Origin: Acidimicrobiia bacterium
GTDB taxonomy: Bacteria; Actinomycetota; Acidimicrobiia; IMCC26256; JAOSJM01
DNA length: 64,000 nucleotides
Assembly: GCA_027494165.1 (NCBI GenBank)
Contig: JAOSJM010000001.1
Coordinates: forward strand, 682,001-746,000
Direction: 5' to 3'
Each line of letters opens with the position of its first letter. Within the stretch, counting starts at the first letter, position 1. This document shows, one piece after another, positions 1,977 to 46,073 of the stretch. Made by a program: the position numbers and the translations under genes. Under the pieces are notes generated by a model, which saw nothing but the letters and a program-made list of their open reading frames with translations, searched no databases and was not told where the DNA came from.

Positions 1977-1994
1977 CCTGACGCCCTCGTCAGG
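1977..1994. promoter_or_regulatory. Operator-like palindrome CCTGAC-N6-GTCAGG
   Basis: CCTGACGCCCTCGTCAGG has perfect 7-base arms around 4 bases. It lies between the ppx-like gene and the aldehyde dehydrogenase, upstream of a possible -10 TACGCT at 2011-2016. The same arms recur in front of the SDR gene (19703-19720), and related dyads precede other lipid genes in the window. The binding protein is unknown. Confidence 0.65.
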
Positions 1995-2047
1995 GTGAGG
2001 AGGGGTCGGGTACGCTGACCGGGTTGCCGTGAGACGAGGGGGGAGCC

Positions 2048-3523
2048 ATGGGCGCCATCGCGGGCGAGGCCCGGATGCTCATCGACGGCGAGCTCGTGGG
2101 GGCGTCGTCGGGCCGCACGTATGCCAACGTGAACCCGGCCACCGAAGAGGTGCTCGGCGAGGTCGCCGACGCCGGCGTCGAGGACATGGAGCGGGCGATC
2201 GAGGCGGCGCGGCGCGCGTTCGACGAGACCGGCTGGACGGACGACCGTGAGCTCCGCAAGCGCTGCCTCCTCCAGCTCCACGAGGCCCTGGCGAGCGAGC
2301 GCGAGACCCTGCGCCCCCAGATCGTCTCCGAGGTCGGGTGCCCGATCTCGCTCACCTACGCGGTGCAGCAGGACAGTTGCATCGACGACATGCTCTACGA
2401 CGTCGGGCTCGTCGACTCCTACGAGTGGGAGTACGACCTCCCCGTCCACGAGTTCTTCGGCGTCAAGAGCTCGCGGCGGGTGTTCAAGGAGCCGATGGGC
2501 GTGGTGGGGGCCATCACGCCGTGGAACTTCCCGTTCATGCTCAACCTCTCGAAGATCGTGCCCGCGCTCGGCGCCGGCAACACGGTCGTCCTCAAGGCCG
2601 CGCCCGACACGCCCTGGAGCGCCACGTTCATCGGGAGGCTCGCCGCCGAGCGGACCGATCTCCCGCCCGGCGTGCTCAACGTCGTCACGTCGGACGACCC
2701 GGCCGCGGTCGGCGAGGTCCTCACCGGCGACCCCCGGGTCGACATGGTGAGCTTCACGGGCTCCACCGTGACCGGGAGGCACATCATGGGGCGCGGGGCC
2801 GACACGCTGAAGAAGGTCTTCCTCGAGCTGGGCGGGAAGTCGGCCCACATCGTGCTCGACGACGCCGACTTCGAGTCGGTGATCCCCGGCGGCGCGATGG
2901 TCTGCATGCACGGGGGCCAGGGCTGCGCGATCACCACCCGCATGCTCGTGCCCCGGTCCCGCTACGACGAGGCGGTGGCCCTGCTCGAGGCCGCCTACCG
3001 GAACATCCCCTACGGCGATCCCTTCGACCCGGCCAACATCATGGGCCCGCTCATCAGCGCGCGGCAGCGGGAGCGGGTCCTCGGCTACATCGAGAAGGGG
3101 AGGCAGGAAGGCGCCCGGCTCCTCGTCGGCGGGGGGACGCCGTCGCACCTCGACAAGGGGTGGTTCGTCGAGCCCACCCTCTTCGTCGACGTCGAGCCCG
3201 ACTCGACGATCGCCCAGGAGGAGATCTTCGGGCCGGTCCTCACCGTGATCCCCTACGAGGACGACGACGACGCCGTCCGGATCGCCAACAACTCGCGCTA
3301 CGGGCTCTCGGGCGCCGTGAGCAGCGCGTCGTTCGAGCGGGCCATGTCCGTGGCCCGCCGCGTCCGTACCGGCACGATGGCGGTGAACGGCGGCATGTGG
3401 TTCGGCCCCGACTCGCCCTTCGGCGGGTACAAGCACTCCGGCGTGGGCCGGGAGCACGGCGTCGAGGGCTTCGAGGAGTACCTGGAGATCAAGACCGTCG
3501 GGTACCCGGCCGACCAGGCCTGA
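2048..3523 (+). CDS. NAD(P)-dependent aldehyde dehydrogenase
   Basis: 491 residues, full length for the aldehyde dehydrogenase superfamily, which oxidises an aldehyde to the acid. Visible landmarks are the cofactor-binding segment ITPWNFPFML, the general base Glu at ~260 (LELGGKSAHIVL) and the catalytic Cys at ~293 (GGQGCAITTR). The C-terminal PFGGYKHSGVGREHG is typical. ATG follows GAGGGGGGAGCC. The substrate is not identifiable; the operator-like dyad upstream and the surrounding CoA-metabolic genes suggest aldehydes from lipid or side-chain catabolism. Its last 35 bases overlap the convergent HMGL-type gene. Confidence 0.9.
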   Translation: MGAIAGEARMLIDGELVGASSGRTYANVNPATEEVLGEVADAGVEDMERAIEAARRAFDETGWTDDRELRKRCLLQLHEALASERETLRPQIVSEVGCPISLTYAVQQDSCIDDMLYDVGLVDSYEWEYDLPVHEFFGVKSSRRVFKEPMGVVGAITPWNFPFMLNLSKIVPALGAGNTVVLKAAPDTPWSATFIGRLAAERTDLPPGVLNVVTSDDPAAVGEVLTGDPRVDMVSFTGSTVTGRHIMGRGADTLKKVFLELGGKSAHIVLDDADFESVIPGGAMVCMHGGQGCAITTRMLVPRSRYDEAVALLEAAYRNIPYGDPFDPANIMGPLISARQRERVLGYIEKGRQEGARLLVGGGTPSHLDKGWFVEPTLFVDVEPDSTIAQEEIFGPVLTVIPYEDDDDAVRIANNSRYGLSGAVSSASFERAMSVARRVRTGTMAVNGGMWFGPDSPFGGYKHSGVGREHGVEGFEEYLEIKTVGYPADQA

Positions 3524-4442
3524 CCGGCGTCGCGCCACGGGTCCCGGTGCCGGCCGTCCCCCCGAATCGGGGGCCGGCGACGCCGACGTGGCTCGCCACC
3601 GGGCGGCCCACACGCGCGCAGGCGATCCGGGCCGCGTCGAGGAGGAGGTCCAGGTCGATGCCGGTGTCCACGCCCGTCGCGTCGAGGCAGTGCACGAGGT
3701 CCTCGAGCGGGAGGTTCCCGGAGGCGCCCGGCGCGAACGGGCAGCCGCCCAGCCCGCCGACGGCCCCGTCGATGCGGTCGACGCCGGCGTCGAGCGCGGC
3801 GAGGGCCCCGGCGAGGGCCATCCCTCGCGTGTCGTGCAGGTGCACCCCCACCGGGATCCCCGGGGAGAGGTCCTTGACCGCGGCGACGAGGTTCCGCGTC
3901 TCGGCCGGCGTCGCGGTCCCGACCGTGTCCGCGAGCCCCAGCCCCGCGGCGCCGGAGTCCAGGGAGCGTCGCGCCTCGTCGAGCACCACCGCGGGGTCCA
4001 CCGGTCCGACGTGGGGACACCCGAACGCCGTGGCCAGCGTGGCCTCGATCCGGGCGGACGCGCCGGCATCGGAGACGATGCCCGCCAGCTCGGTGCGTGA
4101 GGCCTCGACGCTGCGGCCGGCGTTCCGCTCGTTGTGCGGCTCGGAGACGGAGTAGACGAACTGGAGCCGTTCGAAGCCGGCGCCGAGGGCCAGCTCGGCG
4201 CCCCGCCGGTTGAGCACGAGCGCCGAGCAGGCGATCGGTGAGGACGGCAGCACGCGAGCCGAGAGCTCGGCCGCGTCGGCCAGCGCCGGCACCCGGTCGG
4301 GCCGGACGAACGAGGTCAGCTCGACGTCGACGACCCCTGCCGCGACGACGGCGTCGAAGATCTCGACCTTGGCGGCGGTCGGGACCGGAACCTCGTCCTG
4401 GAGGCCGTCGCGGAGCGTGACGTCACGCAGCACGAGGTTCAC
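3489..4442 (-). CDS. HMG-CoA lyase-type aldolase (HMGL family)
   Basis: About 317 residues from GTG 4442, which overlaps the stop of the GntR gene as GTGA. Family landmarks in order are RDVTLRDGLQDE at the N-terminus, GVHLHDTRGMA (metal-binding His-x-His) and the catalytic-loop signature VGGLGGCPFAPGASGN containing the active-site Cys. The family splits 3-hydroxy-3-methylglutaryl-CoA into acetyl-CoA and acetoacetate in leucine or branched isoprenoid breakdown; close relatives split other 3-hydroxyacyl-CoAs. Coupling to a FadR-type GntR gene suggests local control. The C-terminal ~25 residues are Gly/Arg-rich and overlap the aldehyde dehydrogenase end. Confidence 0.85.
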   Translation of the reverse strand: MNLVLRDVTLRDGLQDEVPVPTAAKVEIFDAVVAAGVVDVELTSFVRPDRVPALADAAELSARVLPSSPIACSALVLNRRGAELALGAGFERLQFVYSVSEPHNERNAGRSVEASRTELAGIVSDAGASARIEATLATAFGCPHVGPVDPAVVLDEARRSLDSGAAGLGLADTVGTATPAETRNLVAAVKDLSPGIPVGVHLHDTRGMALAGALAALDAGVDRIDGAVGGLGGCPFAPGASGNLPLEDLVHCLDATGVDTGIDLDLLLDAARIACARVGRPVASHVGVAGPRFGGTAGTGTRGATPVRPGRPGTRRS

Positions 4443-5135
4443 GTCGAGCCCACGGCCCGGTCGAAGAGGTCCTCGGTCGCGAAGGCGCGAACCCGCAACA
4501 GCACGTCGCGTCCCTGGAGGATGTGCTCGGTCATGAGCCGGCCGGCGCGATCGGCTTCGCCGCCCGCGACGGCCTCGAGGACCAGGTGGTGGAAGACGCT
4601 GGACCGCCGGGCCTCCCGGGGCCCGGAACCGTCGGAAGGCCTGGAAGACGAGCGGGATGTCGACCGTCCGGCGGAGCATCCGGAGGAGCCGCTCGTCGCG
4701 TGCCGCCTCGACGACGGCGACGTGGAACGCCTCGTTGCAGCGGTGCAGCTCCCGGACCCCCTCGATGGTGGAGACCGCCGGCACGGCCCGGTCGAAGCCA
4801 GCGAGCGCGACGTGCATCCGTGCGACCTGCTCGGGTCCGGCGCGCGTGGCGGCGCGCCGGGCCGCGTGGGACTCGAGCAGGGCTCGCAGCTCGTAGACGT
4901 CGAGGATGTCCTCGGCGGTCACCGGACGGACGGTGGCGCCCCGGTTCGGTTCGCTGCGGACCAGCCCGTCGGCCTCGAGGCGACGGAGGGCCTCCCGCAC
5001 CGGCGTGCGCGAGAGCTCCAGGTCCTGGGCGATCCGCTGCTCCACCAGGCGCTCGCCGGGGCGGTAGCGCCCCTCGACGATGGCGTCGCGGATGCACCGC
5101 TCGGCGTGCTCGACCCCGTGTCCTCGACCAGGCAT
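4439..5135 (-). CDS. GntR (FadR subfamily) regulator, frameshifted
   Basis: From ATG 5135 the protein starts with a winged helix (RPGERLVEQRIAQDLELSRTPVREALRRLEADGLV split over residues ~20-55) followed by an FCD ligand domain (ELRALLESHAARRA, HRCNEAFHVAVVEA). The frame breaks near 4617-4622 in a GGGCCCCGGGAGG stretch. Dropping one base restores SSVFHHLVLEAVAGG and RLMTEHILQGRD and a TGA at 4439-4441 that overlaps the next GTG. Without correction it appears falsely fused to the HMG-CoA lyase. FadR-type proteins usually sense acids or acyl-CoAs. A sequencing error is more likely than decay because the restored C-terminus is intact. Confidence 0.75.
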
Positions 5136-5239
5136 CGCATACAGGATGGCAGAGATCACCGCCAACGACCGGGGAAGACGCCGCAAGATCGCCGGTGATC
5201 GTGTGCAATCGGGCCGATGACGCCTTGACGGCACATGAT

Positions 5240-5257
5240 CCTGACATTAGCTTCAGA
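5240..5257. promoter_or_regulatory. Operator-like dyad (TGAC-N6-TTCA variant)
   Basis: CCTGACATTAGCTTCAGA lies between the GntR gene (minus) and the first VOC gene (plus). It matches CCTGAC-N6-GTCAGG in the left arm and has TTCAGA on the right. It is flanked by GATC, as is the site at 7216-7233. Confidence 0.5.
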
Positions 5258-5311: not shown

Positions 5312-5848
5312 ATGCCGATCCACCACGTGGCGATCGCCACCCGCGACCTGGAGGCGACCCACGAGTTCTACACCGAGGCGATGGGCTTCGAGCTCGTGAA
5401 GGTCGTCAAGCGCCTCGCTCCCCAAGGGGACGGAGGCTGGAGCCGCCACGTGTTCTACGACACCGGGGGCGACGGCCTCTTCGCCGTCTGGGACCTCCAC
5501 CTCCTCGACGTGGACGAGGGGTGGAGGACGGAGATCTCCAAGGGCCTCGGGCTGCCGACGTGGGTCAACCACGTCGCCTTCACCGCCCACGACCGTGACG
5601 ACCTCGGGGCCAAGAAGCGCAGGCTCCTCGAGCACGGGTGGATCGTCACCGAGGTCGACCACGGCTTCGTCCGGTCCGTCTACGTCCTCGACCCCAACGG
5701 CATCCTCGTGGAGTTCTGCCTGGACCAGGAGCCGCTCACCGAGGCCGACCGCGAGGAGGCGGAGCGGCTGCTCCTCGACGACACCCCGGCGACCATCCCC
5801 GAGCTCGAGGGCGAGATCCACCGCCCCGCGACCGTCCCGAGCCGCTGA
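5312..5848 (+). CDS. VOC (glyoxalase/dioxygenase fold) protein, copy 1
   Basis: 178 residues; ATG 5312 with ribosome site GAAGGAGGGG about 8 bases upstream. Paired beta-alpha-beta-beta-beta modules carry the expected metal-ligand segments: IHHVAIATRDLEATHEFY at the start, NHVAFTA in the middle and LDPNGILVEFC near the end. VOC enzymes use a divalent metal for isomerisation, epimerisation or ring cleavage; the substrate cannot be told. It is a tandem paralogue of the next gene (shared HHVA...DATH.FY, WVNHVAF, DPNGILVE) and follows an operator-like dyad. Confidence 0.8.
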   Translation: MPIHHVAIATRDLEATHEFYTEAMGFELVKVVKRLAPQGDGGWSRHVFYDTGGDGLFAVWDLHLLDVDEGWRTEISKGLGLPTWVNHVAFTAHDRDDLGAKKRRLLEHGWIVTEVDHGFVRSVYVLDPNGILVEFCLDQEPLTEADREEAERLLLDDTPATIPELEGEIHRPATVPSR

Positions 5849-5892
5849 CCGGACGCCGGGCACCAGAACCCGACACCGAGAGGGGGTCCCCC

Positions 5893-6428: not shown

Positions 6429-7121
6429 TCAGGGCGAGTCCGCACCGTCCCCGCCGTCCACGGACCCGGCCGCCCCGGGCGTGGCGTCGGCGCGCCAGTA
6501 GAGGGCGTGGTACCAGATCGTGCTGAGCGTCGCCACGGCGTCGTCGTCGTCGACGGACGTCCTCGTGTCCCCCTCGCCACCCTGGCCCAGCCACACGAAG
6601 CAGAACTGCTCGAACATCGAGGCCAGGGCCGAGGCCGCGAGCCTCGGCTCGAGGTCCGGGCAGAAGCCGTCGGCCTGGGCCCGGCGGATCTCGCGCTCGA
6701 TGTTGTCGACGCCGACGTGGCGGATGTCGCGCCAGCGCTGGGCGAACGCGTCGTCCTTCATGGCGAGCTGGAAGACCCCGACGAGGACGGGGAGGTGCTC
6801 CTTGTAGGCCATCCAATAGGCTCGGGCCGACGCCTCGATCCTCTCGCGTGGTGGTGCGTCGCGCCGGATCACCGACCGGGCCCGCATGATCACCTCGTGC
6901 GGGAACTGGTCGGCGAGGACCCACAACAGATCCTCCTTGCTCTCGAAGTAGTTGTAGAAGGAGGCGGGGGAGCGGCCCGCCTCGGTGGCGATGTCGGCGA
7001 CCGTGGTCCTCAGGAAGCCGTGGCGGGCGATGGCCCGCCGGGCGGCGTCCTCGAACGCCGCCCGGGTCTTGCGTCCCCGGGCACTCGGGGGGAGCGGGGG
7101 CGCGCTTCGCTGGTCAGACAC
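6429..7121 (-). CDS. TetR-family transcriptional regulator
   Basis: 230 residues. The N-terminal helix-turn-helix is clear (AIARHGFLRTTVADIATEAG, then SPASFYNYFESKEDLLWVLA, residues ~28-68). The ligand domain contains RIEASARAYWMAYKEHLPVL and a helix with SMFEQFCFVWLG, as in fatty-acid-responsive TetR proteins. It is divergent from an acyl-CoA ligase with an operator-like dyad (7216-7233) in the shared intergenic region, the usual arrangement for an autoregulated local repressor. It is therefore the best candidate in the window for the protein that reads the TGAC-N6-GTCA sites, but that is inference. Confidence 0.88.
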   Translation of the reverse strand: MSDQRSAPPLPPSARGRKTRAAFEDAARRAIARHGFLRTTVADIATEAGRSPASFYNYFESKEDLLWVLADQFPHEVIMRARSVIRRDAPPRERIEASARAYWMAYKEHLPVLVGVFQLAMKDDAFAQRWRDIRHVGVDNIEREIRRAQADGFCPDLEPRLAASALASMFEQFCFVWLGQGGEGDTRTSVDDDDAVATLSTIWYHALYWRADATPGAAGSVDGGDGADSP

Positions 7122-7215: not shown

Positions 7216-7233
7216 TCTGAACGCGACGTCAGG
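7216..7233. promoter_or_regulatory. Operator-like dyad between TetR and acyl-CoA ligase genes
   Basis: TCTGAACGCGACGTCAGG, flanked by GATC on both sides, is the reverse orientation of the 5240-5257 type (TGAA-N6-GTCA). It lies 95 bases from the TetR start and 49 bases before the ligase start. Confidence 0.55.
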
Positions 7234-9977: not shown

Positions 9978-10052
9978 GTGGACCTCCTTCGTGCGGAGGT
10001 CGACGCATCCACCGTCACCGTCGCGTCACCGTTGCCCCCCGCTGCTCGTGAC

Positions 10053-10070
10053 CCTAACATCAGGTTCAGA
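10053..10070. promoter_or_regulatory. Operator-like dyad, left member of a mirrored pair
   Basis: CCTAACATCAGGTTCAGA lies in the divergent region between the hydrolase (minus) and the ABC importer (plus). Its reverse complement recurs almost perfectly (17 of 18 bases) at 10110-10127, so the two sites face each other with centres 57 bases apart. Confidence 0.65.
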
Positions 10071-10109: not shown

Positions 10110-10127
10110 TCTGAACCTGATGTTAGA
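10110..10127. promoter_or_regulatory. Operator-like dyad, right member of a mirrored pair
   Basis: TCTGAACCTGATGTTAGA is the inverted copy of 10053-10070 and lies 43 bases before the GTG of the solute-binding lipoprotein. It may set importer expression in one direction while its partner sets the hydrolase. Confidence 0.65.
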
Positions 10128-10170
10128 TTCGGGAACAGGGAACAGGGATCCCGGCGGACAAGGGGGCAAC

Positions 10171-11454
10171 GTGCATCGAAGGCTCATGGTGCTGGGACTC
10201 GTCCTGGCACTCCTGACGGCGGCGTGCGGCGACGACGACGGCGACGGCAACGCGAACGGCAACGCGGACAGTCCCACCACGGCGGCCGGCCCGGCCGAGG
10301 TGGCGACGGACAAGGGCGTGACCGACGACGAGATCCGCGTCGGGTTCCTCAACGGCTTCACCGGACCGATCGCTCCGCTGGCCATCGCGGCCGGGGCCGG
10401 GTTCGACGCGGCCGTGCACGAGGTGAACGAGGCGGGTGGCATCTGCGGCCGCGAGGTCGTCACCGTCCGGGGCGACACGAAGTACGACCCGCAGGTGTCG
10501 GTGCAGGAGTACCGGGCCAACAAGGACGACGTGGTGATGCTGGGGTCCCTCACCGGGACCGCCGCGCTGTTCGGGCTCTCCGAGGACATCGCCCGCGACG
10601 GGATCACGGTCCTCGGCGCCACGGGCTCGGCCAGCGTCCTCCCGCTGGAGAACATCTGGCTCTACATCACGTCCTTCACCCACCAGGCCCTCAACGCCAT
10701 CAGCTGGGCGGCCGAGGAAGAGGCCGGTGACGACGGCGCTCTCCAGCTCGGGATCCTCTACCAGGACGACCCGTTCGGCCAGGAGGGCCTCGCGGCGGCG
10801 CAGTTCGCCGAGGCCAACCTCGACAACGTGGAGATCGTCGGTGAGGCCAAGTACGCCGCCGGGGACCAGGACTTCACCGCCCAGGCCCAGGCCCTGAAGG
10901 ACTCCGGGGCCGAGGTCGTGTGGCTCCACGCCATCCCCTCGGCGGTCACGCCCTTCCTCGGGGCGGCCGCGCAGATCGGGTACGAGGCCATCTTCATCGG
11001 CATCGACGCGTCGTGGTCGGCCACGATGGTCGAGCCGCTCGGCGACATCCTCGACAACTACCGGGTCGTCACGTCGAGCGTGGCCTGGGGCGAGGACGTC
11101 GCGGGCATGGACGAGCTCCTGGCCGCCTACGAGGCGGTCTCGTCCGACCCGGGCAACGACTTCGTGATCGCCGGCTACATCAACGGGCGGGTCGCCATGG
11201 CGGCGCTCCGTCGGGCCTGCGAGCTTGGCGACCTGACCCAGGCCGGGATCGGGAAGGCGATGGTCGGCCTCGAGGTGGACAACGGCGGGCTCGGACCGAA
11301 GCTGTCCTTCGGTGACACGCTGGACGAGCAGATCCCCTCTCGGGCGACGCGCGTCAACGCGATCAACCTGGAGGAGAAGCGGGCCGAGCCGCTCACGGAC
11401 TTCGCGGCGTCCCCGCTCGCGGAGCAGTGGACGTTCGACGAGCTCCCCGGGTGA
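10171..11454 (+). CDS. Liv-type ABC importer, substrate-binding lipoprotein
   Basis: 427 residues from GTG 10171 (AGGGGG upstream). A lipoprotein signal (RRLMVLGLVLALLTAACGDD) is followed by an Asp/Asn/Gly-rich linker and a Peripla_BP_6 fold beginning DDEIRVGFLNGFTGPIAPLA. GRDVxTVRGDTK-like and ILYQDDPFGQEGLAAAQ segments are typical of branched-chain amino acid/amide receptors. The ligand may not be an amino acid: the next gene is a long-chain acyl-CoA ligase inside the importer operon, which suggests import of a hydrophobic carboxylate. Mirrored operator-like sites precede it. Confidence 0.88.
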   Translation: MHRRLMVLGLVLALLTAACGDDDGDGNANGNADSPTTAAGPAEVATDKGVTDDEIRVGFLNGFTGPIAPLAIAAGAGFDAAVHEVNEAGGICGREVVTVRGDTKYDPQVSVQEYRANKDDVVMLGSLTGTAALFGLSEDIARDGITVLGATGSASVLPLENIWLYITSFTHQALNAISWAAEEEAGDDGALQLGILYQDDPFGQEGLAAAQFAEANLDNVEIVGEAKYAAGDQDFTAQAQALKDSGAEVVWLHAIPSAVTPFLGAAAQIGYEAIFIGIDASWSATMVEPLGDILDNYRVVTSSVAWGEDVAGMDELLAAYEAVSSDPGNDFVIAGYINGRVAMAALRRACELGDLTQAGIGKAMVGLEVDNGGLGPKLSFGDTLDEQIPSRATRVNAINLEEKRAEPLTDFAASPLAEQWTFDELPG

Positions 11455-11557
11455 TCCCTCCCCGGCTCGGGCGCGGGCGGACCGACGGTCCGCCCGCCCC
11501 GGCCGCCGGGGACCCGAGCCAGGCGCCGGCCGATCCGAAGGGAGCGCAGCGACCCCC

Positions 11558-13435
11558 ATGAGCACCACGGCAGTGCGACCCGCGACCGACGAGCGGCTCG
11601 CCCTCGACACCGTCCCGAAGCTCCTCTGGCACCGGGCCCACGAGCATCCGGCTCGGATCGTGTTCCGGCACAAGGAGCTCGGGATCTGGAACCCCATCAC
11701 CTGGGCGACCTACCTCGCCCGGACCGAGGCGTTCGCCCTGGGGCTCGGGACCCTGGGCGTCGAGCCGGGTGACCGCGTCGCGGTCCACTCCGAGAACCGT
11801 CCCGAGTGGGTGTACGCCGACGTCGCCATCGAGGCCTGCCGGGCCATCGTGGTCGGCATCTACCCCACGAACCCGGCCGCCGAGGTCCGGTACCTGCTCC
11901 AGAACTCGGGAGCCAAGGTGCTCGTGGCCGAGGACCAGGAACAGGTCGACAAGGCGCTCGAGGTCTTCGACGAGTGCCCGGACCTCGAGCGCATCGTCGT
12001 GATCGATCCCAAGGGGATGCGCAGCTACTCGCATCCCGCGCTCGTGAGCTACGACGAGATCGAGGCACGGGGGCGCGAGCTGGCCGAGGCGGATCCCGAT
12101 GCCTTCCACCGGCTCGTCGCCGACACCCGAGCCGAGGACGTGGCCGTGCTCGTGTACACGTCGGGGACGACCGGTCCTCCCAAGGGCGCCATGCTCACCC
12201 AGCAGAACGGCCTCGTCGGGACCCGGGCGTTCGCCGAGGGGATCGGCATCCGCGACGACGAGCAGACGGTCTCCTACCTGCCCCTCTGCCATCTCGCCGA
12301 GCGGGTCTGGACGCTCTACGCCCCACTGACCTACGGCGTGGTGGCGAACTTCGCCGAGTCGATCGACAGCGTCCAGCAGGACATCTACGAGATCGCCCCG
12401 ACCTTCTTCGGTGCCGTGCCGCGGATCGCCGAGAAGATGCAGTCCGGCGTCGAGATCCGCCTCATGGACTCGGCCTGGATCAAGCGCAAGAACTACGAGC
12501 TGTGGATGCGGGTCGGGAGGAAGCTCGCCCGTGAGCGCCTCGAGCGCAGGGGCCACCTGAGCGCCCCGTCGCGGGTCCTCTACGCGCTGGGCAACCTCTT
12601 CCTCTACCGGGCCCTGCGCGAGCGGCTGGGCATGAAGCGGGTCCGCCACTGCCTCATCGGGACGGCGCCGGTGGCCCCCGAGCTCATGGAGTACTTCCAC
12701 GCCATCGGGATCCGCATGATCCAGGCGTACGGCCAGACGGAGTGCGGCGGTGCCTCGCACGCCCACAAGGGCTGGGACATCCGCTTCGACACCGTGGGCG
12801 TCCCTTTTCCGGCCTACGAGTGCCGTCTCGACCCGGACACGGACGAGGTGCTCCTCCGCAGCGAGGGGAACTTCGCCGGCTACTGGAACAACCCCGAGGC
12901 GACCGCCAGGACCCTCGTCGACGGATGGCTCCACACCGGTGACCAGGGGGTGATCCACGACGGCGAGCAGCTCCAGATCGTGGGTCGCATCAAGGACATC
13001 ATCATCACGGCCGGCGGCAAGAACATCTCTCCCTCCGAGATCGAGAACAAGCTCAAGTTCTCCCCGTACGTCAAGGAGGCCGTGGTCATCGGCGAAGGAC
13101 GCAAGTACCTGACGGCCCTCATCGGTATCGAGTTCGACAACGTCGCCCACTGGGCCGAACGGCGCGGCATCCCGTACACCACGTACCGGGACCTCTCCGA
13201 ACGTGAGGAGGTCGTGGAGCTGGTGAGCGAGTGGGTGCAGCACGTGAACGACGAGCTGGCCCGGGTGGAGAACATCCGCAAGTTCCGGCTCATCCCCAAG
13301 GAGCTCGACCACGAGGACGAGGAGCTCACGGCCACCCAGAAGGTCAAGCGGTCGTCGATCGAGAAGAAGTTCCAGGAGCTCGTCGAGACCATGTACGGCT
13401 CGAGGCCGGCGCCCGAGGCGGAAGCGGTCCGATGA
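11558..13435 (+). CDS. Long-chain acyl-CoA synthetase (FadD15-like)
   Basis: 625 residues from ATG 11558 (GAAGGGAG upstream). The long form matches FadD15-type synthetases: P-loop YTSGTTGPPKGAML, AYGQTECGGASH, DGWLHTGDQG, GRIKDIIITAGGKNISP and a C-terminal TATQKVKRSSIEKKF bearing the catalytic Lys. It makes acyl-CoA from the acid, ATP and CoA. Its stop overlaps the start of the permease gene as ATGA, so it is translated as part of the importer operon and probably traps the incoming acid as a CoA ester. Confidence 0.9.
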   Translation: MSTTAVRPATDERLALDTVPKLLWHRAHEHPARIVFRHKELGIWNPITWATYLARTEAFALGLGTLGVEPGDRVAVHSENRPEWVYADVAIEACRAIVVGIYPTNPAAEVRYLLQNSGAKVLVAEDQEQVDKALEVFDECPDLERIVVIDPKGMRSYSHPALVSYDEIEARGRELAEADPDAFHRLVADTRAEDVAVLVYTSGTTGPPKGAMLTQQNGLVGTRAFAEGIGIRDDEQTVSYLPLCHLAERVWTLYAPLTYGVVANFAESIDSVQQDIYEIAPTFFGAVPRIAEKMQSGVEIRLMDSAWIKRKNYELWMRVGRKLARERLERRGHLSAPSRVLYALGNLFLYRALRERLGMKRVRHCLIGTAPVAPELMEYFHAIGIRMIQAYGQTECGGASHAHKGWDIRFDTVGVPFPAYECRLDPDTDEVLLRSEGNFAGYWNNPEATARTLVDGWLHTGDQGVIHDGEQLQIVGRIKDIIITAGGKNISPSEIENKLKFSPYVKEAVVIGEGRKYLTALIGIEFDNVAHWAERRGIPYTTYRDLSEREEVVELVSEWVQHVNDELARVENIRKFRLIPKELDHEDEELTATQKVKRSSIEKKFQELVETMYGSRPAPEAEAVR

Positions 13436-14316
13436 CGAAGTTCCTCCAGCTCCTGTTCCAGGGGATGTCCCTCGGGGCCATCTACGCCCTCATCGCCCTG
13501 GGGTTCGTCATCGTCTTCAAGGGCTCCGGCGTCTTCAACTTCGCCCACGGAGACTTCGTGATGGCCGGCGCGTACGTCGTGGTCGTCGCCGCGGCCAGCG
13601 CCCCGTACGGTCTCGCCGTGGCCCTGGCCCTGCTCGTGCTCGTGCTCCTGGCGCTCGTCGTCGAGCGCACGGTGCTCAGACCCATGCTGGGTCAGCCGCT
13701 CTTCGCCGTGATCATGGTGACCCTCGGCGTCTCGATCATGGTGAGATCCGTGGTCGCCATGCTCTGGGGCGTCGAGGAACGGGGGTCCTCGGCCGAGCCC
13801 ATCGGGCGGGGCGTGGTGCACGCGGGCGAGGTGGCCCTGCCCTGGGTCGGGATCTGGACGATCGGCGTCTCCGTCCTGCTCCTCGCCGCCCTGTGGTTCT
13901 TCTTCCAGAAGACCGGCTACGGGCTCGCGCTCCGGGCGACCGCGAACAGCCAAGAGGCGGCGCTCGCCCAGGGGATCGACATCCGGCGCATGTTCGCGCT
14001 CTCGTGGGCCATCGCGGGGGTGCTCGCCGTCGCCGCCGGGATCTTCCTCGGGGCGTTCCCGCGGCAGGTGACGCCCGCGATGGGGGCGACCGCCCTGGCC
14101 GCCCTCCCCGCCATCATCATCGGGGGCTTCGACTCCGTCCCGGGGGCCGTGGTCGGGGGGCTCTCGGTCGGGATGATCCAGGTGCTCGGCGCCGGCTACC
14201 TGGCCGACGTCGGCGGCGGGAACTTCCACGAGGTCCTGCCCTACCTGGTGATGCTGCTCGTCCTCGCCGTGCGTCCGTACGGGCTGTTCGGCAGCCCCGA
14301 CATCGAGAGGGTGTGA
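13432..14316 (+). CDS. livH: Liv-type ABC importer permease, LivH family
   Basis: 294 residues, about eight hydrophobic segments. It begins FLQLLFQGMSLGAIYALIAL and has the family's GFVIVFKGSGVFNFAHGDF near residue 30 and the EAA-like cytoplasmic loop ALRATANSQEAALAQGID. The C-terminal PYLVMLLVLAVRPYGLFG is characteristic. ATG 13432 overlaps the ligase stop. The gene name reflects the family; leucine transport is not implied. Confidence 0.9.
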   Translation: MTKFLQLLFQGMSLGAIYALIALGFVIVFKGSGVFNFAHGDFVMAGAYVVVVAAASAPYGLAVALALLVLVLLALVVERTVLRPMLGQPLFAVIMVTLGVSIMVRSVVAMLWGVEERGSSAEPIGRGVVHAGEVALPWVGIWTIGVSVLLLAALWFFFQKTGYGLALRATANSQEAALAQGIDIRRMFALSWAIAGVLAVAAGIFLGAFPRQVTPAMGATALAALPAIIIGGFDSVPGAVVGGLSVGMIQVLGAGYLADVGGGNFHEVLPYLVMLLVLAVRPYGLFGSPDIERV

Positions 14317-14317
14317 C

Positions 14318-15409
14318 GTGGCCTCCGGGGTCATCGCCCAGACCTATCGCCAGGACATGGCCCTGCGCCGGGGGTCCCTGCAGTGGCTCGGCGTCGCCGC
14401 CGTGGCCGCCCTCGCCCTCGTGTACCCGTTCTGGGCCGATGCCCGGTGGGAGACGGTCGGCGTGTTCGTGCTCATCGCCGCCACCGCGGGGCTCGGCCTG
14501 CACGTGCTCACCGGCCTCGCCGGGCAGGTGTCGCTCGGGCACTCGGCCTTCGTGGGTGTGGGGGCCTACACCGCGATCTGGCTCGGGGCGGACCACGGGA
14601 TGCCGATGTGGGTGTGGCTCCCCGTCTCCGGTCTGGTGCCCGCCGCGGTCGCGCTCCTGGTGGCGCCGTTCGCGGCCCGGGTCCGGGGGCTCTACCTCGC
14701 CGTCGTGTCGGTGGCGCTGATCTTCGTGGCCAACTACTTCTGGAACTGGTGGGACTGGCTCACCGGGGGGTTCAACGGGCGCACCGCCCAGCCGACGACC
14801 GTCATGGGCCACAACCTGTTCGACGATCTCGACGTGTTCGGGCTCGTGCACCTCAACTCCAACGAGCAGTTCTGGTTCCTCGTGCTGGCGGTCTTCCTCC
14901 CGCTCGCCCTGGCCGCGCGCAACATCCAGCGGACCCGCATCGGGAGGGCCTTCATGTCGGTGCGGGAGCGGGATCTCGCCGCCTCGGTCGCCGGGGTCCC
15001 GGTCACGCGCACGAAGGTCCTCGGCTTCGTCGTGGCCGCCTTCTACGCGGGCGTCGCCGGCTCGCTGCTCGCGGCGTACCAGTCGTACGTCGTCCCGAGC
15101 CAGTGGAACCTGCTCCTCGCCATCTCGTACATCGCGATGATCGTGATCGGGGGCCTGGGCTCGGTGCTCGGCGTCGTGCTGGGCGCCGTCTTCGTCACCG
15201 CGCTCCCCACGTTCGTCGAGTCGCTCGCGGACGTCCTGCCCCTCCTCACCGACAAGCCGTCCACGTCCGGAGGGCTGACGGTCGACCTGGTGTCGACCTT
15301 CCTCTACGGGCTCGCGATCGTCGTCGTGATGGTCGCCGAGCCCCGGGGGATCATGGGGCTGTGGGAGCGGTTCAAGCTGTTCTGGAGGTCGTGGCCGTGG
15401 AGCCCGTGA
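14318..15409 (+). CDS. livM: Liv-type ABC importer permease, LivM family
   Basis: 363 residues from GTG 14318, one base after the livH stop. The Liv permease signature AGQVSLGHSAFVGVGAYTA is at residues ~65-85, and the coupling loop VRERDLAASVAGVPVTRTKV at ~205. About nine membrane segments, ending in an EPRGIMGLWERFK tail typical of LivM. It should pair with the preceding LivH-type protein to form the channel. Confidence 0.9.
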   Translation: MASGVIAQTYRQDMALRRGSLQWLGVAAVAALALVYPFWADARWETVGVFVLIAATAGLGLHVLTGLAGQVSLGHSAFVGVGAYTAIWLGADHGMPMWVWLPVSGLVPAAVALLVAPFAARVRGLYLAVVSVALIFVANYFWNWWDWLTGGFNGRTAQPTTVMGHNLFDDLDVFGLVHLNSNEQFWFLVLAVFLPLALAARNIQRTRIGRAFMSVRERDLAASVAGVPVTRTKVLGFVVAAFYAGVAGSLLAAYQSYVVPSQWNLLLAISYIAMIVIGGLGSVLGVVLGAVFVTALPTFVESLADVLPLLTDKPSTSGGLTVDLVSTFLYGLAIVVVMVAEPRGIMGLWERFKLFWRSWPWSP

Positions 15410-16245
15410 TCGTCGACGTCGCCCGCGACGAGAGCACACCGGTCACGCCGATGCTCGAGATCCGCAACCTCGAGATCGGCTACGAGCGCCTCGCCGAGGT
15501 GGTCCGCGGGGTGAGCCTGACCGTGGGCCAGGGCTCCATCGTCACCCTGCTCGGGCCGAACGGCGCCGGGAAGACGACCATCCTCCGGGCCGTCTCCGGC
15601 CTCCTCGACATCCACGACGGGGAGGTCCGCAAGGGACAGGTGATCCTGGACGGGGCGGACGTCACCGGTGCGCCGGCGGCCCGCATGGTCCGCTCCGGGG
15701 TCACGCTCGTCCCCGAGGGTCGCCAGGTCTTCGACGTGCTCACCGTGGAGGAGAACCTCCGCAGCGGCGCCCACACGCGTCGGCGGGATCCGCAGGAGGT
15801 CGAGGAGAGCCTCGCCGAGGTGTTCACGCTGTTCCCGCCGCTCGAGAAGCTCCGGCGGCGTACCGCCGGCTACCTCTCGGGAGGCGAGCAGCAGATGCTG
15901 GCCATCGGGCGGGCGCTCATGGCCCGACCCCGCCTGCTCCTCCTCGACGAGCCGAGCCTCGGCCTGGCCCCGAAGGTGGTCGAGGAGATCTGCCGGGTGC
16001 TCGTGGAGATCAACCGGAGGGGGACCTCGGTCCTCCTCGTCGAGCAGAACGCGCTCATCGCGCTCCGGATGGCGCACGACGGGTACGTGCTCGAGAACGG
16101 GCGGATCGTGCTCGACGGGCCATCGGACCGGCTGCTCGCCAACGACGACATCCGCGAGTTCTACCTGGGCCTGCACCCGGGTGGGGAGCGGCGCAGCTAT
16201 CGAGAGATCAAGCACTACCGCCGGCGCAAGCGGTGGCTCTCCTGA
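15397..16245 (+). CDS. livF: Liv-type ABC importer ATPase, LivF family
   Basis: 282 residues. GTG 15397 is chosen because GGAGG ends 9 bases upstream; GTG 15406 would give a GTGA overlap. Walker A LLGPNGAGKTTILRAVSGLL, signature YLSGGEQQMLAIGRALM, Walker B LLLLDEPSLGLAP and a His-switch-like Q (LLVEQNAL) are all present. The basic C-terminal extension EIKHYRRRKRWLS marks the LivF subtype found next to acyl-CoA ligases. No second ATPase (LivG) gene lies in this operon or window, although Liv importers normally need two. Confidence 0.88.
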   Translation: MEPVIVDVARDESTPVTPMLEIRNLEIGYERLAEVVRGVSLTVGQGSIVTLLGPNGAGKTTILRAVSGLLDIHDGEVRKGQVILDGADVTGAPAARMVRSGVTLVPEGRQVFDVLTVEENLRSGAHTRRRDPQEVEESLAEVFTLFPPLEKLRRRTAGYLSGGEQQMLAIGRALMARPRLLLLDEPSLGLAPKVVEEICRVLVEINRRGTSVLLVEQNALIALRMAHDGYVLENGRIVLDGPSDRLLANDDIREFYLGLHPGGERRSYREIKHYRRRKRWLS

Positions 16246-16306
16246 GCCCCGGCCCGACGCCGACCTGAGGCCCGACCGTCACGGACCGTCACGAGGGGGG
16301 AAGCCG

Positions 16307-17251: not shown

Positions 17252-17252
17252 C

Positions 17253-19702: not shown

Positions 19703-19720
19703 CCTGACGTGTCCGTCAGG
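19703..19720. promoter_or_regulatory. Operator-like palindrome CCTGAC-N6-GTCAGG
   Basis: CCTGACGTGTCCGTCAGG has the same perfect 7-base arms as site 1977-1994. It ends 9 bases before the -10 element of the SDR gene, covering the -35 region, where a bound repressor would block RNA polymerase. Confidence 0.7.
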
Positions 19721-38486: not shown

Positions 38487-38918
38487 ATGGCCGAGCAGAA
38501 GCTCTACTTCGAGGACGTGAACGAGGGCGACACCGCCCCCGACTTCAGCCACGAGCTCACCCGCACCGACCTCGTCATGTACGCCGGCGCGTCCGGCGAC
38601 TTCAATCCGATGCACACCGACGAGGTGAAGGCCAAGGAGGCCGGGCTGCCGAGCGTCTTCGGCCACGGCATGTTCACCATGGGCCTCCTGGGCAAGGCGC
38701 TCACCGACTACGTCGGCGTGGGCAACCTCCGGTCCTACAAGGTCCGCTTCACCAAGCAGACCTGGCCGGGCGAGGTGCTCACGACGAAGGTCACCGTCAC
38801 CGGGAAGCGCAAGGAGGACGGCGAGGGCATCGTCGACCTGGAGTGCTCCGTGGTCAACCAGGACGGCGAGGCGAAGGTCGCGGGCGAGGCGAGCGCCGCG
38901 CTCCCGAGCCGCTCCTGA
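38487..38918 (+). CDS. MaoC-like enoyl-CoA hydratase (single hotdog)
   Basis: 143 residues from ATG 38487 (GCAGGAGAGG upstream). The hydratase-2 motif is complete: YAGASGDFNPMHTDEVKAKE followed by FGHGMFTMGLLGKAL, giving the catalytic Asp and His. Its size and layout resemble HadB/ChsH1-type single-hotdog subunits, which often work as heterodimers with a partner lacking the motif; no such partner is obvious here. It would hydrate the 2-enoyl-CoA made by the FadE protein. First gene of a five-gene operon. Confidence 0.87.
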   Translation: MAEQKLYFEDVNEGDTAPDFSHELTRTDLVMYAGASGDFNPMHTDEVKAKEAGLPSVFGHGMFTMGLLGKALTDYVGVGNLRSYKVRFTKQTWPGEVLTTKVTVTGKRKEDGEGIVDLECSVVNQDGEAKVAGEASAALPSRS

Positions 38919-38946
38919 CCGCCGGACGGGACGCGCCGTCACCCCG

Positions 38947-39351
38947 ATGCGCTTCGACCTGCCCACGCCCGACCTCGAGCAGCAACCGTTCTGGGACGCC
39001 GCGAAGCAGGAGCGCCTCCTCGTGAAGCGCTGCCGGGCCTGCCGCGCCCACCACTTCTACCCGCGCCCGTTCTGCCCGCGGTGCTGGAGCGGTGACGTCG
39101 AGTGGGTCGAGGCGTCCGGACGGGGGACCCTCTACACGTGGTCGGTCGTCCATGTGAACGACCTGCCGCCGTTCCCGGAGCGGGTGCCCTACGTCGCGGC
39201 CATCGTCGACCTCGACGAGGGGCCGCGCATGGAGACCAACGTCGTAGATTGCGACTTCGACGCCCTGCAGGTCGGGATGCCGCTCGAGGTGACGTTCCGG
39301 GAGATCAGCGACGACTTCGCCATCCCGGTGTTCCGGCCGGCGGAAGGCTGA
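38947..39351 (+). CDS. DUF35 protein (zinc ribbon plus OB fold), copy 1
   Basis: 134 residues from ATG 38947. The N-terminal helix FWDAAKQERLLVKRC is followed by a rubredoxin-like zinc ribbon (C-x2-C at RCRACRA and C-x2-C at FCPRCWS) and an OB-fold with GRGTLYTWSVVH and MPLEVTFREISDDFAIPVFRP. DUF35 proteins are obligate partners of Ltp-type thiolases and aldolases. There are two DUF35 genes in this operon but only one thiolase. Confidence 0.87.
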   Translation: MRFDLPTPDLEQQPFWDAAKQERLLVKRCRACRAHHFYPRPFCPRCWSGDVEWVEASGRGTLYTWSVVHVNDLPPFPERVPYVAAIVDLDEGPRMETNVVDCDFDALQVGMPLEVTFREISDDFAIPVFRPAEG

Positions 39352-39455
39352 GCGCGCCACCACACAGTGAGGACCACAACGGTCGCATGGGGGGCTTGGG
39401 TATCGTGACGGACGCAACATCGACGGTCACACCGTCTGTGTCCGGAGGAGGTGCC

Positions 39456-39815
39456 GTGACCCCCCGAGGTGCCGACAGATCCAAGGACTGGAGCTTCCCG
39501 TTCGAGGGCCCGCTCCACGACGTGTTTCCCGCGCTCCACGAGGCGAACCGGGCGTGGATGTCGCAGATCGACTCCCTCACCGCGCCCGACCGCAAGACCC
39601 ACGAGCTCGTGCGCATGGTGTGCACGGTGATCCTGCGCAACCCCGACGGCGTGAAGCGCCACGCGCGGTTCGCCACCGAGGTCGGTGCGACCTGGGAGGA
39701 GGTCCTGGGCTCGATCATGCTCACGATGCCCGGCTTCGGGCTCCTCCCCGCGGTCGAGGCGATCCCCCACGCCCGGGCCGGGTTCGAGGAGGCCGCCGAG
39801 GTCGAAGCCGACTGA
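39456..39815 (+). CDS. Carboxymuconolactone-decarboxylase-like protein lacking the CxxC redox pair
   Basis: 119 residues from GTG 39456, chosen for GGAGGAGG 5 bases upstream; GTG 39408 after a -10-like TATCGT is an alternative. The helical CMD/AhpD pattern is visible (HELVRMVCTVILRN, RHARFATEVGATWEEVLGSI). The region that carries CxxC in AhpD reads NPDGVKRH, so peroxidase chemistry is unlikely. A decarboxylase-like or hydrolytic role is possible. It sits between the two DUF35 genes, in the catabolic operon. Confidence 0.72.
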   Translation: MTPRGADRSKDWSFPFEGPLHDVFPALHEANRAWMSQIDSLTAPDRKTHELVRMVCTVILRNPDGVKRHARFATEVGATWEEVLGSIMLTMPGFGLLPAVEAIPHARAGFEEAAEVEAD

Positions 39816-39835
39816 GCAGGCGACCGAGAGGGCCC

Positions 39836-40264
39836 GTGACCGACGCCGCCGTCCCCTTCCGCATCCTGCCGAGGGTCACCGACCGCAATCGGCACTTCTG
39901 GACCGGCGGCGCCGACGGCGAGCTGCGGTTCCAGCGGTGCGCCGGCTGCGGACTCCTCCTCCACCCGCCGACGGTCGTGTGCCCCCGCTGCCTCGGCAGG
40001 GACCTCGGTGTCGCGCCCGTCTCGGGGCGGGCCACGGTCGTGACCTACACGGTGAACCACCAGGCCTGGATGCCGGAGCCGGAGCCGCCGTACACGGTCG
40101 CCATCGTCGAGCTGGTCGAGCAGGAGGGCCTCCGCCTGACCACGAACATCGTGAACTGCCCACCCGAGGCGGTCCGGATCGGCATGCCGGTGCGCGTGGT
40201 GTTCGAGGAGCGCGACGGCGAGGTCTGGATCCCCCTCTTCGAGCCGGCGGAGGAGGGCGGGTGA
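39836..40264 (+). CDS. DUF35 protein (zinc ribbon plus OB fold), copy 2
   Basis: 142 residues from GTG 39836. It has the helix RNRHFWTGGADGELRFQRC, zinc ribbon Cys pairs CAGC and CPRC, and OB-fold strands (GRATVVTYTVNHQAW, MPVRVVFEERDGEVWIPLF). Its stop overlaps the thiolase start as GTGA, so this copy is the likely direct partner of the thiolase. It is clearly divergent from copy 1. Confidence 0.88.
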   Translation: MTDAAVPFRILPRVTDRNRHFWTGGADGELRFQRCAGCGLLLHPPTVVCPRCLGRDLGVAPVSGRATVVTYTVNHQAWMPEPEPPYTVAIVELVEQEGLRLTTNIVNCPPEAVRIGMPVRVVFEERDGEVWIPLFEPAEEGG

Positions 40265-41478
40265 CGGACCCCGGCGAGATCATCGAGCGGCGGGCCGTCA
40301 TCAGCGGCGTGGGGCAGTCCGACGTGGGCCGGCGACTGTACCGGGACCCACTCGAGCTCACCGTCGACGCCTGCCTGGCCGCGATCGACGACGCCGGCCT
40401 GACCCCCGCCGACATCGACGGGCTCGCCACCTACCCGGGCGCGACCGACAACCCCCCGGGGTTCTCGGGCGCCGGCATCACCGAGGTCCAGGACGCGCTC
40501 CGCCTCGAGCTCGGCTGGTTCACCGGGGGGTTCGAGCTTCCGGGTCAGCTCGGGTCGGTGGTCGACGCCTGCCTCGCGGTCGCGGCCGGTCTCGCCCGCC
40601 ACGTCGTGGTGTTCCGCAGCGTCTGGGAGGCGAGCGCCCAGGGCGAGAAGGGCCGGGCCGCGGTGATGCCGGGCGGCGGCGACGGCGGCGTCCGCATCCC
40701 CCGCGCGTCGGGGTTCATGGAGTGGACCCTCCCGTTCGCCGCACCCTCCGCCGCGATCTGGATCGCCATGTTCGCCATGCGCCACATGCACGAGTACGGG
40801 ACGACGCGCGAGCAGCTCGCCCAGATCGCGCTCAACGCCCGGAGGAACGCCGCGCTGAACCCGAAGGCGGTCTACCGGGACCCCCTGACGATGGACGACT
40901 ACCTCGCGGCCCGGATGATCTCCGAGCCGCTGTGCCTCTACGACTGCGACGTGCCGGCCGACGGAGCCACCGCCGTCGTCGTGTCGCGGGCCGAGACCGC
41001 TCCCGACCTCCGTCGGCCTCCGGTCCGGGTGGAGGCCGTGGGGACGGCCATCCGGGGGCGGCCGTCCTGGGACCAGTTCGACGACCTCACGACGATGGCG
41101 TGCCGCGACGCCGGCGCCCAGCTCTTCACGCGCACCGAGCTGACCCCGGACGACGTGGACGTGGCCGAGCTCTACGACGGCTTCAGCTTCATCACCCTCG
41201 CGTGGCTCGAGGCGCTGGGCCTGTGCGCCAAGGGAGAGTCCGGTCCCTTCGTCGAGGGCGGCAAGCGGATCGCGCTCGACGGCGAGCTCCCACTCAACAC
41301 GAACGGCGGCCAGCTCTCGGGCGGGCGCCTCCACGGCTTCGGGTTCCTGCACGAGGCGTGCGCCCAGCTCTGGGGCGAGGCGGGGGACCGGCAGGTCCCC
41401 GGCGAGCCCGAGGTCGCGGTGGCCGCCGCCGGTGGCGGCCCGCTGGCCGGCTGCCTGCTGCTCACGCGCTCCCGCTGA
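40261..41478 (+). CDS. Lipid-transfer-protein-type thiolase/aldolase (Ltp family)
   Basis: 405 residues from GTG 40261. Thiolase fold with AVISGVGQSDVGRR, DAGLTPADIDGLATYPG, NARRNAALNPKAVYRDP, and the C-terminal AELYDGFSFITLAWLEALG and NTNGGQLSGGRLHGFG. The usual nucleophile context (NxCASG) is absent; the segment reads VVDACLAVAAGL. The conserved Tyr near AELYDGF fits Ltp2-type retro-aldolases, which cleave side-chain hydroxyacyl-CoAs with a DUF35 partner. Substrate (steroid, bile-acid or branched lipid) is not decidable. Confidence 0.85.
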   Translation: MTDPGEIIERRAVISGVGQSDVGRRLYRDPLELTVDACLAAIDDAGLTPADIDGLATYPGATDNPPGFSGAGITEVQDALRLELGWFTGGFELPGQLGSVVDACLAVAAGLARHVVVFRSVWEASAQGEKGRAAVMPGGGDGGVRIPRASGFMEWTLPFAAPSAAIWIAMFAMRHMHEYGTTREQLAQIALNARRNAALNPKAVYRDPLTMDDYLAARMISEPLCLYDCDVPADGATAVVVSRAETAPDLRRPPVRVEAVGTAIRGRPSWDQFDDLTTMACRDAGAQLFTRTELTPDDVDVAELYDGFSFITLAWLEALGLCAKGESGPFVEGGKRIALDGELPLNTNGGQLSGGRLHGFGFLHEACAQLWGEAGDRQVPGEPEVAVAAAGGGPLAGCLLLTRSR

Positions 41479-41601: not shown

Positions 41602-41619
41602 TCCGACACGGATGTCAGG
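41602..41619. promoter_or_regulatory. Operator-like dyad upstream of FadE
   Basis: TCCGACACGGATGTCAGG has a perfect right arm GTCAGG and an imperfect left arm. It is 16 bases upstream of the -10 element. Confidence 0.5.
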
Positions 41620-45732: not shown

Positions 45733-46028
45733 CCTGTCCCCCCTTGATCCCGGCCAGTCTGCCCGGCGCCGGTGGGAGCGGCCAGGCCCCGGCCGAGCGC
45801 GCCGCCCGTCCCCGCGACGACCCGGGGTCGTGGTGTCAACCGGCGGGGCCTCCCCGACGTCGTACGGGCAGTGGGCAGGGAGGTCGCCATGGCGGGATGG
45901 GGGACGCGGAGGCGCCGGGGCACGGCCGGCCGCCGGCACGGCTGGAGCCTGGAGCGGGCCGTGGCGCCGTACGCACGGGAGCCCTCGGCGTCCGCCCCGA
46001 CCCGTGGGGCCCTCGACGCCCTGGCGCG

Positions 46029-46046
46029 GGTGACGGCGGCGTCAGC
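46029..46046. promoter_or_regulatory. Operator-like dyad TGAC-N6-GTCA
   Basis: GGTGACGGCGGCGTCAGC holds an exact core and abuts a -10 TAGCCT (46047-46052), upstream of the acyl-CoA ligase. The ~290-base stretch before it (45740-46028) holds no gene I can support. Confidence 0.6.
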
Positions 46047-46049
46047 TAG

Positions 46050-46073
46050 CCTGACGCGCGAACGGTCGTCAGG
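46050..46073. promoter_or_regulatory. Second dyad with long spacer (CCTGACG-N10-CGTCAGG)
   Basis: Perfect 7-base arms identical to those of sites 1977 and 19703, but separated by 10 instead of 4 bases (a 6-base insertion). It overlaps the -10 and the predicted transcript start, directly downstream of the standard site. Confidence 0.5.

What the first reader, a model, noticed from the sequence alone, without database searches (positions are those of the whole stretch)
1977..46073. A shared operator, CCTGAC-N6-GTCAGG, in front of about ten lipid/CoA catabolic units
Seen: dyads at 1977, 5240, 7216, 10053, 10110, 19703, 24524, 34716 (weak), 38372, 41602, 46029 and 46050, all in intergenic promoter regions. 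Five have an exact TGAC-N6-GTCA core (1977, 19703, 24524, 38372, 46029); a rough base-composition estimate expects fewer than one such core by chance in the window. The adjacent genes are acyl-CoA ligases, acyl-CoA dehydrogenases, MaoC/DUF35/thiolase, an importer, SDR and aldehyde dehydrogenase. None was noticed in the glycan block after 49.7 kb. Inference: one regulator senses an acid or acyl-CoA and controls a dispersed catabolic regulon. I cannot match the motif to a named regulator.
Basis: partly seen in the sequence, partly recalled or inferred. Interest (0 to 1): 0.82.

Follow-up and report, generated by a model that had tools for sequence, protein, structure and literature searches.

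The report
Shared catabolic switch and its regulator
Short palindromic DNA sites stand in front of breakdown genes for fatty-acid-like compounds in this Acidimicrobiia-type genome and its relatives, and they are likely the binding sites of one conserved TetR-type protein, encoded outside the window, that would keep those genes off until a likely food-derived signal arrives.

Summary
The core observation holds. TGAC-N6-GTCA occurs 5 times in the window (0.73 expected) and 64 times in the genome against 2 for the reversed pattern; 13 of 14 copies in the surrounding 226 kb are intergenic. Class A, CTGACG-N4-CGTCAG, is dispersed and conserved: 273 sites in 58 genomes of the order, reversed control 19. 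Class B (5235, 10048, 10111) is two such dyads overlapping at a 6-bp offset; all 6 genomic copies lie within 30 kb around the window's own TetR, T2. Two listed sites (34716, 46050) fail. The likely class A regulator is TetR T1, 112 kb outside the window: at least 2 sites in 40 of 44 genomes with T1, 0 of 14 without; 26 of 30 T1 genes carry the site in their promoter, against 2 of 49 other TetR entries. Targets include acyl-CoA dehydrogenases, ligases, SDR, P450, amidohydrolase and CoA-transferase genes. Binding, repression and ligand are inferred. It works like the KstR regulon but is not KstR.

The parts
1977..1994 (.). class A operator, exact dyad, between exopolyphosphatase-like gene (311-1879, -) and aldehyde dehydrogenase gene (2048-3523, +)
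   Evidence: 21.8 bits
2048..3523 (+). aldehyde dehydrogenase, close to TIGR04284 (706 bits, below its 775 cut-off)
5235..5256 (+). class B operator (two dyads overlapping at 6-bp offset), in front of glyoxalase-family gene 5312
5312..5848 (+). glyoxalase/VOC-family protein (PF00903)
6429..7121 (-). TetR-family regulator T2, candidate reader of class B
7216..7233 (.). weak dyad between T2 and the ligase at 7283, intermediate between class A and class B
   Evidence: 11.2 bits
7283..8818 (+). acyl-CoA ligase (over the PRK06187 cut-off)
10048..10069 (-). class B operator, first of two in front of the importer operon
10111..10132 (+). class B operator, second of two in front of the importer operon
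10189..19681 (+). likely operon: periplasmic binding protein, FadD11-like ligase, two permeases, ABC ATPase, 2-hydroxyacid dehydrogenase, CoA-transferase III, hydrolase-like
19703..19720 (.). class A operator, exact dyad, in front of SDR-luciferase-like fusion gene
   Evidence: 20.3 bits
19744..21414 (+). SDR-luciferase-like monooxygenase fusion; SDR relatives with the site in G028 and G036 (start could be 19726)
22942..24504 (-). AMP-forming acyl-CoA ligase; relative (65.5%) with the site in G012
24524..24541 (.). class A operator (exact core 24526-24539) in front of the ligase on the minus strand
   Evidence: 17.8 bits
38372..38389 (.). class A operator (core 38374-38387); TTGACA-N18-TAGCAC overlies it
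38487..41478 (+). MaoC-like, two ChsH2-like (DUF35) proteins and a thiolase whose best solved match is 6ok1 (lipid-transfer protein)
41602..41619 (.). weak class A candidate in front of an acyl-CoA dehydrogenase gene (41648-42841)
   Evidence: 11.5 bits
46029..46046 (.). class A operator (core 46031-46044) in front of an acyl-CoA ligase gene
   Evidence: 20.4 bits
46097..47722 (+). AMP-forming acyl-CoA ligase

Best explanation
The exact palindromes CTGACG-N4-CGTCAG in this window are predicted operators of one TetR-family protein (T1, encoded 112 kb upstream of the window), which likely represses its own gene and a dispersed set of acyl-CoA and oxygenase catabolic operons until a likely acid or CoA-thioester ligand releases it. 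Shown by the calls: the motif, its intergenic position, its conservation across the order, its co-occurrence with T1, and a site in T1's own promoter. Inferred: that T1 binds it, that binding blocks RNA polymerase, and what the ligand is. A second, lineage-specific regulator, likely the window's TetR T2, would read the overlapping double form (class B) of the same CTGA half-site inside a 30-kb block of importer, ligase, flavin-monooxygenase-superfamily and glyoxalase-family genes.
For: Motif: 5 cores vs 0.73; 64 vs 2 reversed in the genome; 13 of 14 intergenic in 226 kb; unconstrained flanks of 27 sites from other genomes repeat the own consensus, C at -1 in 67%. Co-occurrence: 44 T1 genomes hold 270 sites (control 15), 14 without hold 3 (control 4); at least 2 sites 40 of 44 vs 0 of 14; outside the order 9 of 20 vs 11 of 317. 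Autoregulation: matrix site within 400 bp upstream of 26 of 30 T1 genes, 0 of 29 other own TetR genes, 2 of 20 T2-homologue entries (two of those 20 repeat own genes). T1a branch 29 of 32. Targets: 10 of 33 foreign targets match an own target at 45% or more over at least 170 residues. Class B: 6 of 6 genomic copies within C1:662904-692132 around T2.
Against: No binding or expression data. Degenerate dyads are not enriched. T1 usually comes with a paralogue T1b, so co-occurrence cannot tell them apart. Four T1 genomes have 0 or 1 exact sites (G020, G022, G030, G056), and 5 of 20 T1 genomes outside the order have none. 11 of 317 genomes without T1 outside the order have 2 or 3 sites. T1's own site here is imperfect (13.7 bits, just over the cut-off of 13). 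Some targets are not catabolic (GGDEF-EAL, Rrf2, exopolyphosphatase, gene 53190). AMP-binding genes are as common among control genes (2 of 52) as among targets (3 of 44). T2 as reader of class B rests on position and on 5-mismatch resemblance of its own promoter site.
Confidence: 0.75

Rival explanations
1. One regulator, the window's own TetR T2, reads all the dyads, exact and overlapping alike.
For: T2 has a weak dyad in its own promoter (7216, 11.2 bits) and lies amid the sites; 2 of 20 T2-homologue entries have a class A-like site upstream.
Against: T2 homologues (E up to 1e-15) are in 17 of 58 order genomes and at most 40% identical outside this genome, while the sites are in 45 of 58.
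Confidence: 0.06
2. T1b, the paralogue (C1:1616238-1616987), or T1 and T1b together read class A.
For: Many T1 genomes have two family members; own class A sites lie 3 kb from T1b at C1:1613173 and 1613267, by MaoC-like and SDR genes.
Against: None of 6 T1b-branch rows has a site in its own promoter, own T1b included.
Confidence: 0.12
3. Class B sites are double sites for T1 rather than for T2.
For: They share the CTGA half-site, and two of them score over 13 bits on the class A matrix (662907: 13.3; 687238: 17.7).
Against: Other T1 genomes have only sporadic class B matches: 12 in 10 of 57 genomes, reversed control 2.
Confidence: 0.3
4. The dyads are chance or compositional features of GC-rich intergenic DNA.
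For: Degenerate dyads are not above expectation.
Against: Exact cores exceed shuffles and the reversed pattern; one spacer is enriched; presence follows T1.
Confidence: 0.02

Closest known systems
KstR regulon of mycobacteria (Rv3574; PMC1995591, passages read)
   Same: Autoregulated TetR-family regulator, palindrome in its own promoter, dispersed intergenic sites (16 and 31 in two species per that paper), lipid catabolism genes.
   Different: Operator TnnAACnnGTTnnA; T1 scores 22.2 bits on the NCBIfam KstR model against a cut-off of 280. KstR was tested at the bench, T1 was not.
FadP and PsrA regulons of proteobacteria (PMC5343134, passages read)
   Same: TetR-family fatty-acid degradation regulons reconstructed by comparative genomics.
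   Different: Other phylum; their motifs were not in the passages seen, so operators were not compared.
MftR (PMC8728441) and BkaR (PMC3920632), passages read
   Same: Actinobacterial TetR-family regulators with palindromic operators; MftR is reported to answer to long-chain acyl-CoA.
   Different: Operators T-N2-GGCA-N5-TGCC-N2-A and GTTA-N-T-N4-A-N-TAAC; T1 scores 27.7 bits on the MftR model against 224.9.
EthR (fold neighbour)
   Different: About 25% identity. EthR's operator was not compared.

Membership tests
TetR family | TetR_N domain (PF00440) over its cut-off | tested here: met
   T1 66.1 bits, cut-off 24; T2 53.4 bits
TetR family | all-helical TetR fold | tested here: met
   T1 model, pLDDT 82.8; fold matches. 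T2 not modelled
KstR | passes the NCBIfam KstR model cut-off | tested here: not met
   22.2 against 280 bits
KstR | operator TnnAACnnGTTnnA | tested here: not met
   class A is CTGACG-N4-CGTCAG; KstR motif from PMC1995591
MftR / FasR / Bacillus FadR | passes the NCBIfam model cut-off | tested here: not met
   27.7/224.9, 35.6/330, 48.4/200 bits
EthR | EthR-type C-terminal domain and fold | tested here: inconclusive
   Nearest fold but tied with FadR; PF21313 is precomputed for several T1 homologues but not for T1 itself
autoregulated TetR catabolic regulon (kind, not family) | site in the regulator's own promoter, conserved | tested here: met
   26 of 30
autoregulated TetR catabolic regulon (kind, not family) | regulator binds the operator and is released by a ligand | not testable with these tools
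   needs gel shift and ligand assays

The most novel reading that the evidence does not exclude
T1 is the master switch of hydrophobic-substrate catabolism in a whole order of Acidimicrobiia, a KstR-like role built on an unrelated operator, and a younger, local regulator (T2) has taken over the same CTGA half-site in a double, 6-bp-offset form to split an acid-uptake block off the ancestral regulon.
Probability: 0.42. Interest if true: 0.68.

Novelty: new member of a known kind. Interest (0 to 1): 0.55.

Why it matters
Most named contigs that matched T1 are metagenome assemblies. A regulator-operator pair readable from sequence in dozens of such genomes would assign many unnamed oxygenases, amidohydrolases and acyl-CoA enzymes to one shared programme and gives a direct test: one purified protein, one 20-bp probe, a panel of acids and CoA esters. 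It also shows that an operator seen in one window can be traced to a regulator outside it by co-occurrence and promoter footprints.

Tried and rejected
Mismatch-tolerant scanning with CCTGAC-N6-GTCAGG: no enrichment, dropped for the exact core and a matrix. Class B as mere class A variants: set aside after the genome-wide count, kept as a rival. 34716 and 46050: rejected. Named regulators: the KstR, MftR and BkaR operators in the passages seen differ; the one MadR passage found gives no motif; FadP and PsrA motifs were not in the passages seen. Literature: exact motif strings gave 0 papers and 1 paper, on a eukaryotic bZIP factor; TetR with Acidimicrobiia gave 3 papers and with Acidimicrobiales 1 (listings only), none listed as being on such a regulon; one search gave 73 papers, 20 listed; (both half-sites plus TetR) gave 658 papers of which 15 were listed and none opened, so it decides nothing; one search gave 7 papers, none opened; one search gave 1 paper, read in passages. 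Only open-licence papers are held, so absence from print is not shown. NCBIfam tally of targets was swamped by cross-matching ligase models.

Rows dropped before counts: of 37 order targets, 4 (two from T1-less G002, two from this genome) leaving 33; of 50 own targets, 6 leaving 44: one spanning two pieces, two class B, one of 64 residues, one cut, and the gene at 53190, whose 14.2-bit site speaks against a purely catabolic regulon. Of 64 genomic TGAC-N6-GTCA places 50 were listed and examined: 44 intergenic, 6 coding; one of the 44 (C5:1417930) lies where no gene was called. Promoter test: 30 T1 loci of 44 T1 genomes, 30 of 39 own TetR genes (one is T1), 20 T2-homologue entries of which two repeat own genes. 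Tree: 70 rows; duplicates of order genomes and partial or distant matches left out. In one search at most 8 candidates per genome were scored, so a missed T1 outside the order is possible. The matrix was built on 13 sites of this genome, so counts in its own 226 kb are partly circular; pattern counts in other genomes are not. My gene caller was trained on this genome and used on others.
Full report
What was checked first. The exact core TGAC-N6-GTCA is found five times in the window where shuffles give 0.73, and 64 times in the 4.41-Mb genome against 2 for the reversed pattern. Fourteen of the 64 lie in the 226 kb around the window (C1:560001-786000), 13 of them between genes in a stretch that is 81% coding by my own caller. 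Among spacers 0 to 15 only N6 stands out (14 hits; the others 0 to 7). Degenerate matches to CCTGAC-N6-GTCAGG are not enriched, and the full 12-base dyad has only three places in the genome. A control of 20 stretches (120 kb) elsewhere in the genome has two matrix sites over 13 bits, both coding; the 226 kb have 20, 19 of them intergenic (13 of these trained the matrix).

Two classes. Aligning the sites gives class A, a 16-bp dyad CTGACG-N4-CGTCAG; the flanks of 27 exact sites from other genomes, which the pattern does not constrain, repeat the preference ACC...GGT. The dyads near 5240, 10053 and 10110 are something else: CTGAAYCTGANRTTAGNNTCAG, two CTGA-N8-TNAG dyads overlapping at a 6-bp offset (class B). 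With up to 2 mismatches there are six class B sites in the genome, all at C1:662904-692132, none for the reversed pattern; the 57 other genomes of the order have 12 hits in 10 genomes, reversed control 2. Sites 34716 and 46050 fail the class A matrix; 41602 and 7216 are weak.

Conservation. CTGACG-N4-CGTCAG is present in 45 of the 58 held genomes of the order, 273 sites in all against 19 reversed. Of the one site per genome returned for 30 genomes, 28 are intergenic; the two coding ones belong to G002 and G003, which have no T1. Outside the order 75 of 337 genomes of the class have a match, mostly a single one. The named contigs closest to T1 are Acidimicrobiia or unclassified Actinomycetes assemblies; the window's genome itself is unnamed, so its class is inferred.

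The regulator. Of 39 TetR_N domains in the genome, 30 were returned with flanks; only one of these has a class A matrix site over 13 bits in its promoter: T1, C1:569840-570628, 112 kb upstream of the window. T1-family proteins (E up to 1e-30) occur in 44 of 58 order genomes; these hold 270 sites (control 15), the 14 others 3 (control 4); at least two sites in 40 of 44 vs 0 of 14. The T1-less genomes fall into six families, so relatedness lowers the number of independent cases. Large T1-less genomes (G001-G003, G007, G047, G049; 3.5-5.3 Mb) have 0 or 1 site, so size does not explain it. The association also holds outside the order (9 of 20 vs 11 of 317 with two or more), where T1 genes of 43-45% identity in G130, G228 and G290 have the exact dyad 51-64 bp upstream of the aligned core. 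In the order 26 of 30 T1 genes have a site within 400 bp upstream of the aligned core; the background rate predicts 0.016 per promoter; 0 of 29 other own TetR genes and 2 of 20 T2-homologue entries have one. The four misses: L099's contig begins 53 bp upstream, L116 scores 12.9, L121 is the zero-site genome G030, and L124 falls in the T1b branch. In a tree of 70 family members, at a cut-off of 12.5 bits, the T1a branch has the site in 29 of 32 rows and the T1b branch in 0 of 6; a further Acidimicrobiaceae branch has 7 of 7, six of them with a common variant dyad; a Streptosporangiaceae-type branch has 0 of 9.

Targets. In this genome 44 counted first genes include acyl-CoA dehydrogenase domains (4), CoA-transferase III (3), AMP-forming ligases (3), SDR (3), P450 (3), amidohydrolase 2 (3), luciferase-like monooxygenases (2) and MaoC/FAS1-dehydratase-like (2), with single citrate synthase, ETF, aldehyde dehydrogenase and enoyl-CoA hydratase matches, but also GGDEF-EAL, Rrf2 and exopolyphosphatase. 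In other genomes SDR (8 of 33), amidohydrolase 2 (4), acyl-CoA dehydrogenase (3) and ABC exporter-type proteins (3) lead. Of 52 control first genes, at most one each matches SDR, acyl-CoA dehydrogenase, P450, CoA-transferase III or amidohydrolase 2, while AMP-binding is matched by 2, so ligases alone show no enrichment. Ten of 33 foreign targets match an own target at 45% identity or more over at least 170 residues, among them the window's SDR fusion (G028, G036) and the ligase at 22942 (G012); in the five best matches printed for each, one control gene appears, at 29%. The thiolase of the MaoC/ChsH2 operon at 38487-41478 has 6ok1 as best solved match, E 1.2e-59, titled lipid-transfer protein; that this is the Ltp2 retro-aldolase system is recalled. 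The class B gene at C1:663018 is in the HpaB superfamily (182 bits, below the cut-off of 480), but its best solved match is a vinylacetyl-CoA isomerase, so an aromatic substrate is not shown.

Comparison. The nearest analogue is KstR (PMC1995591; passages read): the same logic, another protein and another operator. T1 passes no NCBIfam cut-off among the 21 models it matches. It is therefore filed as a new member of a known kind, an autoregulated TetR catabolic regulon, here in Acidimicrobiia.

Noticed in passing
G000 C1:230149, C1:1482961, C5:466409, C5:800729, C5:805401: Five of the 64 TGAC-N6-GTCA hits form another motif, TTGACCG-N2-CGGTCAA; one lies just upstream of a TetR gene (C1:1482996), so a further regulator with its own operator is likely.
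   Followed up: partly
G000 C1:1613173 and C1:1613267 (L029): Two class A sites 3 kb from the paralogue T1b, between MaoC-like and SDR genes; several T1b loci from other genomes also have a site 2-3.5 kb downstream.
   Followed up: partly
G000 C1:613806 and C1:596091 (L021, L020): Class A sites in front of a GGDEF-EAL protein and of an Rrf2-type regulator: the regulon may reach c-di-GMP turnover and a second regulator.
   Followed up: no
L172, L175, L178, L180, L182, L184, L185 upstream of the T1-family gene: Acidimicrobiaceae members of the T1 family carry a variant dyad close to AACCTGACCACCGTGTCAGGTT.
   Followed up: partly
window 34783-36960: One 725-residue protein with two acyl-CoA dehydrogenase units in tandem.
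   Followed up: no
window 26040-27568: AMP-binding ligase split over two overlapping frames (26639-27568 and 26040-26660), perhaps a frameshift in gene or assembly.
   Followed up: no
window 46050-46073: CTGACG-N10-CGTCAG directly downstream of a class A site: same half-sites, spacer 6 bp longer.
   Followed up: no
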